Shown here: positions 39,128 through 64,000 of the stretch, in pieces | Numbering within the stretch: the first letter of the stretch is position 1 | Layout: the number at the start of each line of letters is the position of its first letter | Origin: Clostridium sp. 1001271st1 H5 | Lineage (GTDB): Bacteria > Bacillota > Clostridia > Lachnospirales > Lachnospiraceae | Assembly (NCBI RefSeq): GCF_005845215.1 | Contig: NZ_SPHO01000003.1 | Coordinates: forward strand, 186,001 to 250,000 | DNA length: 64,000 nt | Reading direction: 5' to 3' | Program-made: the position numbers and the translations under genes | The notes under the pieces: generated by a model | What the model was told of the DNA's origin: nothing | Databases searched by the model: none | The model's input: only the letters and a program-made list of their open reading frames with translations

Positions 39128-41389
39128 TTATAAATCAGTATGGAGGAATTGCTCATCGTACAGCTTCTGGGCATAATTCAGTGCGTCCTCTGGCGTCATG
39201 ACCTGGCTGTAGGCATTTTTTACTGCCATGCCTATGATGCTCAGGAAGCTGCGCTCATCAAAGGGCTGGGTGGAGAATTCAGGAGTGCGGCGCCCGTGCG
39301 CCAGGCCGAACCCGTCCTTGGCCAGGTTCAGCCAGGGGAAGGTATTGAGTATCTCGTAATTGTCATAGGACTTGCGGCAGGGAGACACGCTGCCCAGCAG
39401 AGTGGCTGCAGAGGCCACCGGCTCGCTGCACATCCATTTGATGAAGGAAAGGGCGTCTTCGGGCCGTCTGGTATACTTGGCCACGCCCAGGGAACCGCCT
39501 CCAATGACAGGATTGCTGCCCGGCGTCAGGGCGTACCCGATGTTTCCCGCCACACGGGAGGAGTGGCTTAAAAGGTCCGAGGCATAGTTGCTGTACAGGA
39601 TGGCCATGGCCACATTGCCTCCGGCAAAGGTGGTGGCTGTGTTGGTCCACCAGGAACAGTACTTGGGGTCCGAGTATTCCTTCAGGGCAATGAGCTCCTT
39701 CAGGGAGCCGATGGCTGCAGGGGAATTAAGCGTGACCCGGCAGTCCCCGCCGTACAGATTCTCCTGGTGGCTGAACAGGCGGGCCAGGTATTCGGAACCA
39801 GCCACTCCGGTGGAGCCAAGGGTCATGGTGGCCCCATATTCCACCGGGGAGGATGGGGTACAGGCCTTAGTGAAGAACCGTGCAATCTGGTTGAACTCCT
39901 TGAAATCCTGGGGCGGCCTCAGCTCCTGGCGGTAGGTTTCGTGGTACATCCTGCGGTAGATGGGACTTTCGAACAGATCCTTGCGGTAATAAAGCAGCTG
40001 TACGCTGGGGGTGGACGGCAGGGCGTATACCCTTCCTCTGACAATGGAATACTGGTTGATGGTCCCGTCCAGGAAGGTGTCCAGGCAGCTGGAGATGTGG
40101 GGGTCAATCTGGTCCAGGGGCTGCAGAATTTTGTCCGCAAACCAGGACAGCCACGTCACATCCAGACGCAGCACGTCAAAGACCGAGTCGTGGCGCATGT
40201 GGTTGAATGCCTCGTATATCTCCTCATAGGAATAGATGGTGATGTTCACGGGAACCCCTGTCTTTTTTGTGTAAATGCGGGACAGGTTGCGCATGGTGTA
40301 AGCGCTGGGACTGTCCAGGGTCAGTACATTTAGGGGCTTCTTGGAGGAAGGGATAAGGATGCCTGCAAACCAGTCCCTGAAACCGGAATTTTCCAGCAGC
40401 AGACAGGGATGACTGCTGTGGGGCCTTGCCCGGCGGCCTGGTTCCTCCTGTTCTCCGGCGGCCTCCGTTTTTGCCTTTTTTTCCTGTCCTATGTCCTCAA
40501 TCAGGCATTCTGCCGCAATCTTTCCCAGCTGCCGGTAGTTCAGCTCATATTTCTGGAAGTCATTTTCCGGCATGGTGAACATGGGGGAAACCGTGTAAAT
40601 CTCAGGGCTGTCCCCGGAATAAAAGGTGTTCCATATATCCTTGACACTCTCGGCAAAGCCGTAATTGGAAATAAAAATGGCCTGGGGCGCAGCGCCGCCG
40701 AACATCTGCATGATATTCTGCAGCTTGCGGTACGGGTCTGTCTGAATGTGGTTTACCCGGCAGCCGGCTGAACCCATGACTCCCATGAATCCGTTGCAGA
40801 AGTCGGATTCATGGGGCAGCTGGAGACTGCCTGTAAGAAGACACAGGCTGGAAAAGCCGCGCTCCAGCGCCCTTGACGCCAGTTCGCTTCCGGCCTTGTG
40901 GTAGTCAAAGCCCACATAGGGGGCCGGAAAGGGAGGACGGCGTTCTGCAAACACCACATGGTCTGCCAGCATGCCCTGCTCGTCCAGGTAAGGATTTACG
41001 TCGGTGAAGGAACAGCAGGAAACAGCGGCCATGCCCTGGGCCATGGAGGAACGGACCTCCTGGATGGCTGCGTATTCCGCTTCCCGGTTGTCATCGCTGG
41101 TCAGGTACTGGGACACGCTGTAGCCGTGGCTTTCAGCATACGCCTTAAAACTCAGATAAAAGTCTATATATTGTTTGGAACGGATGTTGGGTAGAATGAC
41201 CGCAAGGGTATTGGAATGGCCTTTCCTCAGCAGCTTGGCCCGTTCATTGGGCACATAGCCAAGGGCGGCGGCGGCGTCCATGACCTGCCTTATTTTTTCG
41301 CTGCTCACATTTCCCTTTCCGTTGAGAACGTTGGACACAGTGCCCTGGGCCACCCCGGCCGCCTTTGCAATGTCTTTGATGGTAGTCAT
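39128..41389 (-). CDS. LacI-type regulator fused to a family 1 solute-binding-protein domain
   Basis: 753 residues, about twice a normal LacI protein. Residues 1-50 are a LacI helix-turn-helix (TIKDIAKAAGVAQGTVSNVL, hinge region through GYVPNERAKLLRKG). Residues 60-295 form the usual periplasmic-binding-like effector domain (LAVILPNIRSKQYIDFYLSF; GFDYHKAGSELASRAL). A charged linker (300-345) leads to about 400 residues of extracellular solute-binding protein type: YALPSTPSVQLLYYRKDLFE, GNVAMAILYSNYASDLLS and ALSFIKWMCSEPVASAA. There is no signal peptide or membrane helix, so the binding-protein domain must be cytoplasmic and sense an imported ligand. Divergent from the ABC locus it presumably regulates. 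Promoter TTTACA-17-TAAAAT at 41454-41426; GAAAGGAG before the ATG. Confidence 0.85.
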   Translation of the reverse strand: MTTIKDIAKAAGVAQGTVSNVLNGKGNVSSEKIRQVMDAAAALGYVPNERAKLLRKGHSNTLAVILPNIRSKQYIDFYLSFKAYAESHGYSVSQYLTSDDNREAEYAAIQEVRSSMAQGMAAVSCCSFTDVNPYLDEQGMLADHVVFAERRPPFPAPYVGFDYHKAGSELASRALERGFSSLCLLTGSLQLPHESDFCNGFMGVMGSAGCRVNHIQTDPYRKLQNIMQMFGGAAPQAIFISNYGFAESVKDIWNTFYSGDSPEIYTVSPMFTMPENDFQKYELNYRQLGKIAAECLIEDIGQEKKAKTEAAGEQEEPGRRARPHSSHPCLLLENSGFRDWFAGILIPSSKKPLNVLTLDSPSAYTMRNLSRIYTKKTGVPVNITIYSYEEIYEAFNHMRHDSVFDVLRLDVTWLSWFADKILQPLDQIDPHISSCLDTFLDGTINQYSIVRGRVYALPSTPSVQLLYYRKDLFESPIYRRMYHETYRQELRPPQDFKEFNQIARFFTKACTPSSPVEYGATMTLGSTGVAGSEYLARLFSHQENLYGGDCRVTLNSPAAIGSLKELIALKEYSDPKYCSWWTNTATTFAGGNVAMAILYSNYASDLLSHSSRVAGNIGYALTPGSNPVIGGGSLGVAKYTRRPEDALSFIKWMCSEPVASAATLLGSVSPCRKSYDNYEILNTFPWLNLAKDGFGLAHGRRTPEFSTQPFDERSFLSIIGMAVKNAYSQVMTPEDALNYAQKLYDEQFLHTDL

Positions 41390-41610: not shown

Positions 41611-41639
41611 TTGACACGTTTCAAATACAATGCTATGAT
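41611..41639 (+). promoter_or_regulatory. Promoter of the binding-protein gene with LacI-type operator
   Basis: TTGACA (41611-41616), 17 bases, TATGAT (41634-41639) with TG one base upstream of the -10. The sequence TTGACACGTTTCAA at 41611-41624 is a palindrome about a central CG with a single mismatch, the form of LacI-family operators, and covers the -35 box. Confidence 0.8.
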
Positions 41640-41692: not shown

Positions 41693-43091
41693 GTGAAAAA
41701 AACAAAGAAGATTGCAGCAGCAGTCCTGGCCATGACCATGGCAGCAGGCCTTGCCGTCACAGGATGTTCCGGAAAGGGAGGAAGTACCGGGACTGACGGG
41801 GCGCCGGCAGAGCAGTCTAAGGAAACCGGGGGGGGGCACGAATGACTCCAAGGATGATGCAGCCAAGGCTGACGACGGCGCGCTGCACCTTACCTTTTAT
41901 TACCCGGTCAATGTGGGCGGTTCCGCGGCGCAGCTGATTGAGAAAATCTGTGCGGATTTCAATGCAGAGAACCCTGATATTTTCGTGGAGCCTGTTTATA
42001 CGGGCAATTATGACGATACAGTGACAAAGATTCAGACAGCCATGCAGGGCGGCACGCCTCCGGATGTGTTTGTAAGCCTTGCCACCCAGCGCTTCACCAT
42101 GGCTTCCACCGGCATGGCCATGCCTCTTGACGAACTGATTGAGGCTGACGGAGATGAGGGAAAGGCTTATATCGATGATTTCCTTCCGGGCTTCATGGAA
42201 GACTCCTATGTGGACGGAAAGATTTACTCCATACCGTTCCAGAGAAGCACCATGGTGCTGTATTACAACAAGGACGCGTTCAAGGAAGTGGGGCTGGATC
42301 CGGAAGCGCCTCCCACCACCTGGGAAGAGCTGGCTGAGTACGGCCAGAAGCTGACGGACGACGGACGCTACGGCGTGGGAATCGCTCTGAACTCAGGTTC
42401 CGCACAGTGGGCGTTTACAGGCTTCTGCCTGCAGAACAGCACCGACGGACAGAACCTGATGAGCGAGGACGGGAAGAGCGTGTATTTCAACACGCCTGAG
42501 AATGTGGAGGCGCTTCAGTTCTGGCTGGACCTTCAGAATGAGTACAAATGCATGGCGGAGGGTATTGTACAGTGGACCGACCTGCCCACCCAGTTCCTTG
42601 CAGGGGAGGTGGCCATGATTTACCACACCACAGGCAATATGGCGAATATCCATGACAATGCGGACTTTGATTTCGGGACAGCCTTCCTTCCGGCCCACAA
42701 GAGAGTGGGAGCGCCTACAGGAGGCGGCAACTTCTATATCTCCAGCGGCATTTCCGAGGACAGGGTGCAGGCTGCCTGGAAGTTCATCAAGTTCGCGACC
42801 TCTACGGACAGGGCGGCGCAGTGGAGCCTGGATACTGGTTATGTGGCCACAAGGCAGTCCTGCTTTGACACGGACCTGATTAAGGATTATTATGCAGAGG
42901 TTCCCCAGGCATCTGTTGCTTACGAGCAGCTTCCCTACGCAAAGCCTGAGCTTACTACATACAATGCAGCTGAAATCTGGAGGGTGTTAAATGATAACAT
43001 CCAGGCAGCCGTGGTCGGCGATATGTCTGCCCAGGAGGCCCTGGATGCAGCCCAGGAACAGGCAGAGGAGGTTCTGTCCGAGTATCAATAG
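41693..43091 (+). CDS. Extracellular solute-binding lipoprotein, frameshifted at a G9 tract
   Basis: A GTG at 41693 after GAGGAGGT opens a lipoprotein signal (KKTKKIAAAVLAM, lipobox VTGC with cysteine at about residue 25), but the frame meets TGA at 41843 just after nine G (41828-41836). The rest of the protein continues one base ahead to 43091, and is a complete sugar-binding protein: FYYPVNVGGSAAQLIEKICA, GGTPPDVFVSLATQRF, PFQRSTMVLYYNKDAFKEVG and GEVAMIYHTTGN. With eight G the whole 465-residue lipoprotein would be one frame. The long open frame also has an internal ATG at 41751, but a product from it would lack export. So the gene is off as written, phase-variable, or carries a sequencing error. 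First gene of a CUT1-type sugar import operon. Confidence 0.85.
41828..41836 (+). repeat. Run of nine G inside the binding-protein gene
   Basis: Nine G in a row, 20 codons after the lipobox cysteine. Loss of one G joins the signal peptide to the mature protein. Confidence 0.9.
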
Positions 43092-43130
43092 ACCGGATGA
43101 AACATGAACGTAATACCTGTTAGGAACAAG

Positions 43131-43207
43131 TAAGGCGCTGTGGCCCGGTGCCATGTGGGGCGGAGGCAAGGTTTCCGCCTCCATGACCGGGCATACACAG
43201 CGCCTTA
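43131..43207 (+). other. Large stem-loop between binding protein and permease genes
   Basis: TAAGGCGCTG (43131-43140) pairs with CAGCGCCTTA (43198-43207), with inner stems CCCGGT/ACCGGG and GGCGGA/TCCGCC. No T-run follows. Such hairpins usually stabilise the binding-protein message and lower read-through to the permeases. Confidence 0.75.
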
Positions 43208-43270
43208 AGAGACCGGGGTGTGTCACAAAACCCGGCCCGGCAGGCGGAATATGAAAAGGCTGGTGAGAGG

Positions 43271-44167
43271 ATGAAAACCAAGACAAAGAAGCAGCGTGAA
43301 ATCAGGAATAATGCGACGGCCTGGGCCCTGATGGCCCCGGCGCTTATATTTATGCTGGCATTTACAGTGTTCCCCATATTCAGGAGCCTGTATTTAAGCC
43401 TTTCAAAGTACAAGCTTGGTATGGACAGCGCCGAGTTCATCGGCCTTGAGAATTATGTGAAGCTGGCCGGTTCCAAGCTGTTCTGGAAGGTGATGAAAAA
43501 TACCATCGTATTCGCCCTTATGACGGTGATTCCCAGTATGGCGGTGGGCCTCGGCCTGGCGGTTCTGGTAAACCGCAAGGGCAAACGGGTGGGATTTATC
43601 CGCACGGCTTATTTCTACCCGGTGGTCATGCCCATGATTGCCATTGCCAGCGTGTGGATGTTTATTTACATGGCAAAGAACGGACTCTTTGACCAGCTGC
43701 TGATAGCCATGGGGTTAAAACCCATGAATGTGCTGTCCAGCAAGAATACGGTGCTCCCGGCCATGGCGGTGATGTATGTATGGAAGGAGGCCGGATACCT
43801 GATGGTATTCTTCCTGTCCGGTATCCAGAGCATATCCGACGAGGTGATGGAGGCTGCCAGGATTGACGGGGCAGGCAACTGGACCGTGTTCAGGCGCATC
43901 ACCATTCCCCTGCTGGCGCCCACCTTCCTGTTTGTGTCCACCATCGCCTTCACCAACTGCTTTAAGCTGGTGGACCATGTGGTCATCATGACAGAGGGAG
44001 CGCCCAACAATGCAAGCACCCTGCTTCTGTACTATATTTACCAGCAGGGCTTCACCAATTTCAACTACGGCGTATCATCGGCCCTGACCGTAATCATGCT
44101 GGGACTTCTTCTTGTGGTGTCCCTGCCAAGGTTCATCAGCCAGGATAAGAAGATACATTATAATTAA
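43271..44167 (+). CDS. Sugar ABC transporter permease (MalF-like)
   Basis: 298 residues, six transmembrane segments. The cytoplasmic ATPase-contact loop EAARIDGAGNWTVFRRITIP (near 198-217) carries the E-A-A-x3-G signature of CUT1 permeases. With the next gene it forms the membrane channel of a carbohydrate importer. ATG 43271 is chosen over the in-frame GTG 43220, which has no ribosome binding site and adds a polar stretch lying in the intergenic hairpin end; the site AAAAGG is weak and 11 bases away. No ATPase gene is present, which is usual for CUT1 systems sharing an MsmX-type ATPase. Confidence 0.9.
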   Translation: MKTKTKKQREIRNNATAWALMAPALIFMLAFTVFPIFRSLYLSLSKYKLGMDSAEFIGLENYVKLAGSKLFWKVMKNTIVFALMTVIPSMAVGLGLAVLVNRKGKRVGFIRTAYFYPVVMPMIAIASVWMFIYMAKNGLFDQLLIAMGLKPMNVLSSKNTVLPAMAVMYVWKEAGYLMVFFLSGIQSISDEVMEAARIDGAGNWTVFRRITIPLLAPTFLFVSTIAFTNCFKLVDHVVIMTEGAPNNASTLLLYYIYQQGFTNFNYGVSSALTVIMLGLLLVVSLPRFISQDKKIHYN

Positions 44168-62019: not shown

Positions 62020-63165
62020 ATGGATTTTGGCAATATAATTAATAACCTGCTGAATCAGATGGCCTTTTTCCATCTGGAAGCAGGCAACTATGTAATGATA
62101 GCAGTGGCCCTGGTGTTCTTATACCTTGCTATCAGAAAGGGATTTGAACCCCTGCTGCTGATTCCGATTGCATTCGGTATGCTGCTGGTTAATATTTATC
62201 CGGATATCATGTATTCTCCGGAGCAGACGTCCAACGGAACCGGCGGACTTCTGTGGTACTTTTTCCAGCTGGATGAGTGGAGTATCTTACCATCCCTTAT
62301 CTTCCTGGGCGTTGGAGCCATGACAGACTTTGGCCCCCTTATCGCAAACCCAATCAGTTTCCTCATGGGCGCTGCGGCACAGCTGGGCATTTATTCCGCA
62401 TATTTCCTGGCTATCCTGCTGGGATTCTCAGGCAAGGAGTCTGCCGCCATCTCCATTATCGGCGGTGCAGATGGCCCTACATCCCTGTTCCTGTGCAGTA
62501 AGCTGGGGCAGACCCAGATTATGGGCCCCATTGCAGTTGCAGCTTATTCCTACATGGCGCTGGTGCCCATTATCCAGCCGCCGTTCATGAAGCTGCTGAC
62601 AACTGAAAAAGAGCGCAAGATTAAGATGGAGCAGCTTCGTCCCGTATCCAAGCTGGAGAAGATTCTGTTCCCCATCATCGTAACCATCGTGGTTTGTCTG
62701 ATTCTGCCGTCCACAGCGCCCCTTGTAGGTATGCTGATGTTAGGCAACCTGTTCCGCGAGAGCGGTGTTGTAAAGCAGCTGGCTGATACGGCAAGCAACG
62801 CCCTGATGTATATCGTGGTTATCCTGCTGGGTACATCCGTAGGCGCCACCACCAGTGCGGATGCATTCTTAAATGTGACTACCATCAAGATTGTTGCCCT
62901 GGGCCTGACTGCATTCATCTTCGGAACCATTGGCGGCGTTCTTTTAGGCAAGCTCCTCTGCAAGATTACCGGAGGAAAGATTAATCCGCTTATCGGTTCT
63001 GCCGGCGTGTCCGCAGTTCCTATGGCAGCCCGTGTATCCCAGAAAGTGGGAGCTGAAGCAGACCCCACCAACTTCCTGCTGATGCACGCAATGGGACCAA
63101 ACGTTGCAGGCGTTATCGGCACAGCAGTTGCGGCCGGTACTTTCATGGCAATCTTTGGGGTATAA
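62020..63165 (+). CDS. Sodium ion-translocating decarboxylase subunit beta
   Basis: 381 residues with about nine membrane segments. It decarboxylates carboxybiotin and pumps sodium outward (OadB, MmdB and GcdB family). Conserved stretches: GAMTDFGPLIANPISFLMGA near 97, SIIGGADGPTSLFLCSKLG near 146-164 containing the key aspartate, LGTSVGATTSADAFLNVTTI near 270 and GPNVAGVIGTAVAAGTFM near 360. The order after the biotin protein and before an OadA-type gene is typical of the operon. GGAGGGAA precedes the ATG. The sodium gradient produced may serve the symporter at 3.7 kb and the flagellum-free uptake systems. Confidence 0.95.
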   Translation: MDFGNIINNLLNQMAFFHLEAGNYVMIAVALVFLYLAIRKGFEPLLLIPIAFGMLLVNIYPDIMYSPEQTSNGTGGLLWYFFQLDEWSILPSLIFLGVGAMTDFGPLIANPISFLMGAAAQLGIYSAYFLAILLGFSGKESAAISIIGGADGPTSLFLCSKLGQTQIMGPIAVAAYSYMALVPIIQPPFMKLLTTEKERKIKMEQLRPVSKLEKILFPIIVTIVVCLILPSTAPLVGMLMLGNLFRESGVVKQLADTASNALMYIVVILLGTSVGATTSADAFLNVTTIKIVALGLTAFIFGTIGGVLLGKLLCKITGGKINPLIGSAGVSAVPMAARVSQKVGAEADPTNFLLMHAMGPNVAGVIGTAVAAGTFMAIFGV

Positions 63166-63199
63166 TGACATTAGATTTTAAACGAGGAGGATTAGAACT

Positions 63200-64000
63200 A
63201 TGGCAGAGATAGAGAAGAGGCCAGTGAAGATTGTGGAAACCGTCCTTCGTGACGCCCACCAGTCTTTGCTTGCGACCAGAATGTCCACTGAGCAGATGCT
63301 GCCCATTATTGATAAGATGGACAAGGTAGGCTACCATGCGGTTGAGTGCTGGGGCGGAGCTACCTTTGATTCCTGCCTCCGTTTCCTGAAGGAAGACCCA
63401 TGGGAGAGACTGAGGAAACTGAGAGACGGATTTAAGAACACCAAGCTGCAGATGCTGTTCCGCGGACAGAACATCCTGGGATATAACCATTATGCAGACG
63501 ATGTTGTGGAGTACTTTGTACAGAAGTCCATTTCCAACGGTATTGATATTATCCGTATCTTTGACTGTCTGAATGATATCCGCAACCTGGAGACAGCTGT
63601 AAAGGCCACCAACAGGGAAAAAGGACATGCGCAGATTGCACTGTGCTACACCCTGGGCGATGCCTACACCCTGGACTACTGGAAGGATATTGCCAAGAGG
63701 ATTGAGGACATGGGCGCTGATTCCCTGTGTATCAAGGACATGGCAGGACTGCTGACTCCATATGCGGCGGCAGAGCTGGTACAGGCCCTGAAGGAAGGAA
63801 CAAAGCTTCCAATCGACCTGCATACCCACTACACATCAGGCGTTGCTTCAATGACCTACTTAAAGGCAGTGGAGGCAGGATGTGAAATCATTGACTGCGC
63901 CATGTCGCCTCTGGCCCTGGGAACCAGCCAGCCGGCTACCGAGGTTATGGTGGAGACTTTCCGCGGCACACCATATGATACGGGCTATGACCAGTCACTG
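63200..64000 (+). CDS. Oxaloacetate decarboxylase alpha/pyruvate carboxylase subunit B type carboxyltransferase, N-terminal part
   Basis: 267 codons before the right edge; the 3' end lies outside. The HMGL-like TIM barrel is clear: KIVETVLRDAHQSLLATRM near 10-28 with the metal aspartate, VECWGGATFDSCLRFLKEDP near 50-70, MLFRGQNILGYNHYADDVVE near 90, DSLCIKDMAGLLTPYAAAEL near 175, and LHTHYTSGVASMTYLKAVEA with the metal histidines near 210. It transfers carboxyl from oxaloacetate to biotin, or the reverse. Last visible gene of the decarboxylase operon, 34 bases after the beta subunit. GAGGAGG precedes the ATG. Confidence 0.93.
   Translation, partial: MAEIEKRPVKIVETVLRDAHQSLLATRMSTEQMLPIIDKMDKVGYHAVECWGGATFDSCLRFLKEDPWERLRKLRDGFKNTKLQMLFRGQNILGYNHYADDVVEYFVQKSISNGIDIIRIFDCLNDIRNLETAVKATNREKGHAQIALCYTLGDAYTLDYWKDIAKRIEDMGADSLCIKDMAGLLTPYAAAELVQALKEGTKLPIDLHTHYTSGVASMTYLKAVEAGCEIIDCAMSPLALGTSQPATEVMVETFRGTPYDTGYDQSL

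What the first reader, a model, noticed from the sequence alone, without database searches (positions are those of the whole stretch)
41828..41836. G9 tract places a sugar-binding lipoprotein out of frame: possible phase variation
The signal peptide and lipobox (from GTG 41693) and the mature binding protein are both intact but in different frames, meeting exactly at nine G. Eight G would give one 465-residue lipoprotein. Homopolymeric G runs early in surface-protein genes are classic contingency loci; here the effect would be ON/OFF switching of a whole sugar importer. A homopolymer sequencing error is the main alternative.
Basis: partly seen in the sequence, partly recalled or inferred. Interest (0 to 1): 0.8.

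Follow-up and report, generated by a model that had tools for sequence, protein, structure and literature searches.

The report
Poly-G frameshift in sugar-binding lipoprotein
In a gut bacterium related to Clostridium clostridioforme, a run of nine Gs separates the export signal of a sugar-binding protein from the rest of it; it is probably a slippage-prone on/off site in a genus rich in long G runs, but switching here is not shown and a sequencing error is not excluded.

Summary
In detail: nine Gs at 41828-41836; the GTG-41693 signal peptide and lipobox enter the run in one frame and the mature binding protein leaves it in another. At this junction the window is the exception: 79 of 81 related loci are in frame and two cannot be judged. 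The gene is no old wreck: since its split from the nearest relative (G004) the window branch shows 17 synonymous and 0 replacement codon changes in 411 codons. G004 has an interrupted in-frame run; the next relatives have none. New context: this genome has 62 runs of exactly G7, none of G8, and 14 of G9-G15. Across 16 genomes of the genus, 178 runs of nine or more stand against 37 of exactly eight (artefact-suspect G012 left out). Several split genes of classic phase-variable classes. Phase variation is thus credible for the genus and plausible here, but G9 is the shortest long-run class in this genome, the run is not conserved, and no reads or second isolate were seen. Best reading: a recent slippage-made OFF allele, perhaps reversible. 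Main rival: homopolymer error.

The parts
41611..41639 (+). promoter-like site; TTGACACGTTTCAA operator-like palindrome at 41611-41624 overlaps its first hexamer
   Evidence: 11 of 12 consensus positions; the palindrome or a close variant is on the + strand of 20 of 32 loci L003-L034. Consensus match only.
41693..41827 (+). signal peptide, lipobox (..LAVTGC) and Gly/Ser-rich linker of the lipoprotein, 45 codons from GTG
   Evidence: aligned to in-frame relatives
41828..41836 (+). G9 run, the junction of the two frames
41838..43091 (+). mature sugar-binding protein, other frame, to its stop codon
   Evidence: 417 codons open; SBP_bac_8 176.6 bits, piece 41841-43088
43220..44167 (+). ABC permease 1 (ORF as listed from GTG)
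   Evidence: BPD_transp_1 65.2 bits
44182..44997 (+). ABC permease 2
   Evidence: BPD_transp_1 70.5 bits
39128..41389 (-). divergent regulator: LacI HTH joined to a binding-protein-like domain
   Evidence: LacI 52.7 bits, SBP_bac_8 72.2 bits

Best explanation
The G9 is a real allele of a slippage-prone poly-G run that arose recently in the linker behind the lipobox. In the sequenced cells its length puts the mature protein out of frame. Translation from GTG 41693 stops two codons after the run, no anchored binding protein is made, and the ABC importer lacks its capture subunit (OFF). As the change is a slip in a homopolymer and the rest of the gene is pristine, it should be able to slip back; it would then act as a translational phase-variation switch of sugar uptake, one of many poly-G sites in this genus. 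Shown: frames, run, relatives, selection, genus-wide long runs and gene classes. Inferred: that the run varies in living populations, that loss of the binding protein stops import, and that reversal is frequent enough to matter.
For: Frames and run. Window branch 17 synonymous, 0 replacement codon changes over 411 codons. G004 also differs from the next relatives by an insertion at this very site, as GGGGGAGGGGG. Bimodal run lengths: 62 of 7, 0 of 8, 14 of 9-15 in this genome; 178 of 9 or more against 37 of 8 in 16 genomes of the genus. Runs splitting exported proteins right behind the signal peptide also in L142 (G000) and L153 (G004). The PrpR-type regulator has G11, G12 and G13 in three species, split, split and joined. 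No frame break in 29 comparable window ORFs.
Against: No within-species variation could be looked for. G9 is the shortest long-run class in this genome; the only other G9 (L139) is in frame and its run is absent in three aligned relatives. At this junction 79 of 81 related loci are in frame, 2 not judgeable, so this is not a conserved switch. mutS1 is intact, which may hold slippage down. Dinucleotide shuffles would allow such a run by chance. Many long runs in the genus are intergenic, at gene ends or young, so mutation pressure rather than selection may explain them. At the PrpR site neighbouring bases differ too, so run length alone does not set its frame.
Confidence: 0.5

Rival explanations
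1. Homopolymer miscount in the assembly: the cells carry an in-frame run and the gene is normally ON.
For: The site is the longest G/C homopolymer of the window, where errors fall; purifying selection (17 to 0) and in-frame relatives fit a working gene. The sequencing method is unknown.
Against: 29 ORFs with a full-length G004 counterpart hold 70 homopolymers of 5-8 bases without a frame break; but none of these is as long as 9. The other G9 of the genome keeps its gene in frame.
Confidence: 0.3
2. Fixed, recent loss: the frameshift is real but simply a dead gene, without useful reversal.
For: Only this genome is out of frame at the junction; run not conserved; mutS1 intact. A one-base loss elsewhere in the same gene is seen in L009/L085, though that record is a MAG contig at about 8x.
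Against: No replacement change on the window branch, so the loss would have to be very young; a homopolymer slip is the most reversible kind of frameshift.
Confidence: 0.12
3. The G9 is read through by RNA-polymerase or ribosome slippage, so a fraction of full-length lipoprotein is always made from the out-of-frame gene.
For: A nine-G run is a possible slippage template (general knowledge); conservation of both halves would follow.
Against: No relative keeps an out-of-frame arrangement, so no sign of a conserved recoding site. Not tested here.
Confidence: 0.05

Closest known systems
Poly-G/C translational phase variation in Campylobacter (PMC6321876 and PMC4965091; passages seen)
   Same: G runs inside reading frames with length setting the frame; cut-off used there is 7 or more G/C; surface-structure enzymes are a main class; non-variable homologues may have a shorter or interrupted run (passages).
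   Different: There variation is measured in colonies; here nothing was measured. The window's gene is a nutrient-uptake lipoprotein, and mutS1 is present.
Listeria monocytogenes inlA 5' homopolymer alleles A7, A6 and A2GA4 (PMC2831843; passages seen)
   Same: A pure run in and out of frame, and an interrupted in-frame version in other lineages, as with G9 and GGGGGAGGGGG here.
   Different: Poly-A, several isolates, slippage measured with reporter fusions; here poly-G, two species, one genome each.
LacI-controlled ABC sugar importer cluster (family-1 binding protein with two permeases)
   Same: Binding protein, two BPD_transp_1 permeases, divergent LacI-type regulator, operator-like palindrome at the promoter.
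   Different: The regulator carries its own binding-protein-like domain and the binding protein is out of frame in this assembly.

Membership tests
SSR-mediated (poly-G) phase-variable gene | Homopolymer long enough to be hypermutable, inside the reading frame | tested here: met
   G9 at codons 46-48 from GTG; cut-off of 7 or more G/C used for Campylobacter. Hypermutability itself was not measured.
SSR-mediated (poly-G) phase-variable gene | Run length sets whether the full protein is read | tested here: met
   Both halves open, in different frames at G9; in frame in L084 with its own 11-base version
SSR-mediated (poly-G) phase-variable gene | Run length varies between cells or isolates of one species | not testable with these tools
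   one genome per species held; no reads; viral-contig scan 0
SSR-mediated (poly-G) phase-variable gene | Reversible ON/OFF expression | not testable with these tools
   needs colonies and protein assay
SSR-mediated (poly-G) phase-variable gene | Run kept in related species (supporting, not strictly defining) | tested here: not met
   interrupted in G004, absent in L003/L086 and L009/L085
ABC-importer binding lipoprotein | Binding-protein fold family | tested here: met
   SBP_bac_8 176.6 bits, SBP_bac_1 149.5 bits, both over cut-off
ABC-importer binding lipoprotein | Signal peptide with lipobox cysteine read in the same frame as the mature part | tested here: not met
   out of frame at G9 in this assembly

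The most novel reading that the evidence does not exclude
Enterocloster, a mutS1-bearing genus of gut Lachnospiraceae, keeps a large poly-G phasome: genomes hold from a few to more than twenty runs of 9-26 G that switch polysaccharide enzymes, DNA methyltransferases, regulators, surface proteins and even sugar-capture lipoproteins, so that clonal gut populations are mixtures in what they eat as well as in surface. The window's binding protein is one such nutrient-uptake switch.
Probability: 0.35. Interest if true: 0.8.

Novelty: new member of a known kind. Interest (0 to 1): 0.5.

Why it matters
If the run switches, single strains of a common gut anaerobe would hedge sugar uptake by slippage, and cultures typed from one colony would misreport what a strain can eat. 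More broadly, I saw no paper on the genus-wide excess of long G runs in the listings of ten searches (open-licence PubMed Central only; three of the lists were cut short). If it holds up, it would extend poly-G contingency loci, best known to me from Campylobacter, Helicobacter and Neisseria (recalled), to Lachnospiraceae, and it warns that some 'pseudogenes' in these genomes may be OFF states.

Tried and rejected
Other isolates of the species: the genome-contig scan (downstream piece as query; 301 relatives found, best 80 kept) and the genus search (17 genomes) gave only other genomes, one per species; the tools note that records near the window may be left out. One viral contigs pattern scan gave 0. 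The cap for metagenome contigs is 0, so none was run.

Chance run: by dinucleotide shuffle a G9 is not improbable. As a full account I reject it because lengths are bimodal genome-wide. From 62 runs of exactly 7 and an assumed continuation probability of 0.25, about 0.3 runs of 11 or more are expected, at 0.33 about 1.1; 9 are seen (model, runs). The window's own continuation is 0.17 (4 to 5) and 0.10 (5 to 6).

Old pseudogene: rejected by 17 to 0.

General frameshift errors: the DNA alignment lists many gaps not divisible by three between window and G004, in my reading mostly intergenic or in poorly aligned, compensated stretches; I rely on the ORF test instead. Of 51 mechanical ORFs (some antisense), 29 are covered for 95% or more in one frame, 14 have no match above 70% identity, 8 are partial. 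Of the partial ones one is this gene, 63143-63829 is covered to 216 of 228 residues, the others lie, by my reading, at breaks in synteny or on the antisense strand.

Internal start in the mature frame (TTG 41751): it could give only a signal-less protein; no clear ribosome-binding site by eye.

G012 (210 runs of 9 or more, 21 of exactly 8) was dropped from genus sums and G161 (126) set aside as odd; I suspect assembly artefacts, not tested. With G012 the genus sums would be 388 and 58. In one of the 16 kept genomes, G014, runs of 8 (4) outnumber longer ones (3).

Full report
OBSERVATION. The window has nine Gs at 41828-41836, its only run of 8 or more G or C. Upstream, from GTG 41693, 45 codons encode a signal peptide with lipobox and a Gly/Ser-rich linker; past the run this frame ends after 2 codons. 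The frame open for 417 codons downstream is another one. It encodes a binding protein (SBP_bac_8, 176.6 bits).

SETTING. The gene heads an ABC sugar-importer cluster: two BPD_transp_1 permeases follow, and a divergent regulator joins a LacI HTH to a binding-protein-like domain. A promoter-like site (11 of 12 positions; 41611-41639) overlaps TTGACACGTTTCAA; this or a close variant is on the + strand of 20 of 32 related loci, L003-L034. The genome is 6.52 Mb in 75 contigs.

RELATIVES. The closest orthologue, L084 in G004, is 96% identical in DNA. It has GGGGGAGGGGG at the site and reads in one frame. L003/L086 and L009/L085 have no run. I looked at 81 distinct loci: the 80 kept (of 301 found), plus L084; L085-L091 appear to repeat earlier records. 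In 79 the frame of the mature part runs back to a start with, by eye, a signal-like N-terminus; L033 is cut by a contig end and L081 runs open to a contig end without a clear start. L009/L085, in frame at the junction, has a one-base loss further in.

SELECTION. Over 411 codons window and G004 differ by 38 bases in synonymous and 6 in replacement codons. Polarised with G005, the window branch has 17 synonymous and 0 replacement codon changes, the G004 branch 17 and 3. The gene worked until very recently, or still works at times.

ASSEMBLY QUALITY. Of 51 non-overlapping mechanical ORFs of 120 aa or more, 29 have a G004 counterpart covered in one frame for at least 95% of their length, 14 have none above 70% identity, 8 are partial, this gene among them. 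The 29 (33.3 kb) hold 70 homopolymers of 5-8 bases without a frame break. This speaks against a generally error-prone assembly, but no run of 9 is among them.

GENOME-WIDE RUNS. G000 has 62 runs of exactly 7, none of exactly 8, and 14 longer ones: two of 9, three of 10, five of 11, three of 12, one of 15 (read from the overlapping matches). All 17 genomes of the genus searched have runs of 9 or more. Leaving out G012, 16 genomes hold 178 such runs against 37 of exactly 8, not a decaying tail, though G014 alone shows 3 against 4. In 150 genomes drawn from the family (G000 and G001 included) 54 have no run of 9 or more and 11 have ten or more, against 10 of 17 in the genus.

WHAT THE RUNS SIT IN. 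I read all 14 in G000, all 23 in G004, all 17 in G005 and 8 of 20 in G009. Several are intergenic, at gene ends or in no clear gene. Others split genes: in G000 a 29-codon signal peptide from an 875-codon protein with choline-binding repeats (L142), and a PrpR_N half from a Sigma54_activat/HTH_8 half (L144). Two G000 genes are in frame across the run: L139 (G9; YARHG and PBP_like_2) and L143 (G11; no Pfam match in the piece scanned). In G004 the split frames include a C5 methylase, a Dam-type methylase, an alpha/beta hydrolase behind a 30-codon signal peptide, a PRD/EIIA regulator, a BTAD protein, a GH3 enzyme, an acyltransferase (26 G; below Pfam's cut-off), a hexapeptide transferase and an FctA-domain protein; in G005 a polysaccharide pyruvyl transferase is joined. 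Of 20 pieces scanned, chosen by hand, 18 had a Pfam match and 2 none; no test of class enrichment was made. The L144 site is shared: G11, G12 and G13 in G000, G004 and G005, split, split and joined, with small differences beside the run as well. A run in the tail of a CpsD-like kinase (name recalled; Pfam AAA_31) is shared by G000 and G005. By contrast the GH3 run of G004 is absent in four aligned relatives and the L139 run of G000 in three, so many runs are young.

MECHANISM. The window's G9 most likely reflects slippage in a young run. Out of frame, no lipoprotein is made and the importer lacks its capture subunit; a slip back would restore it. The states seen (no run, interrupted run, pure run) resemble the A7, A6 and A2GA4 alleles of Listeria inlA (passages of PMC2831843) and the shorter or interrupted poly-G runs of non-variable Campylobacter homologues (passages of PMC6321876). 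Switching frequencies of 0.004 for G8 and 0.02 for G11 are given for Campylobacter (passage of PMC4965091). The window's genome has an intact mutS1, so rates may be lower here.

LIMITS. No reads and no second isolate were available. Whether the run varies, which sugar is bound, and whether the permeases stay active without the binding protein were not testable. Phase variation is plausible, not shown; error remains the main rival.

VERDICT. Observation confirmed; interpretation partly supported; a candidate new member of a known kind. The wider, less expected result is the genus-wide stock of long G runs.

Noticed in passing
L133-L145 (G000), L146-L165 (G004), L166-L180 (G005), L181-L185 (G009): Long G runs (9 to 26) throughout the genus, several splitting methyltransferases, polysaccharide enzymes, regulators and exported proteins.
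   Followed up: partly
L144:5699-5709, L155:2072-2083, L173:1993-2005: PrpR-type sigma-54 activator with a G run in three species (G11, G12, G13), split, split and joined; the best-supported shared run site.
   Followed up: partly
window 39128-41389 (-): LacI HTH fused to a binding-protein-like domain, divergent from a binding-protein gene: a regulator that may sense the same sugar.
   Followed up: no
window 43092-43222 (+): Very stable hairpin between binding-protein and permease genes (-64.4 kcal/mol, z -5.49), perhaps setting their expression ratio.
   Followed up: no
L009 near 5085 (same record as L085): A one-base loss in a G-rich stretch puts the same binding protein out of frame about 65 codons into the mature part, in a MAG contig named with about 8x coverage.
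   Followed up: partly
L157:2025-2045: GH3 gene of G004 with an A9G12 double run where G000, G012, G008 and G002 have none.
   Followed up: partly
G012 and G161: 210 and 126 runs of nine or more G, far above their relatives; assembly artefact suspected, not tested.
   Followed up: no
L136:5907-5918: By eye, a G12 run within a terminator-like hairpin between two genes; L158 and L180 hold alike G15 and G14 sites.
   Followed up: no
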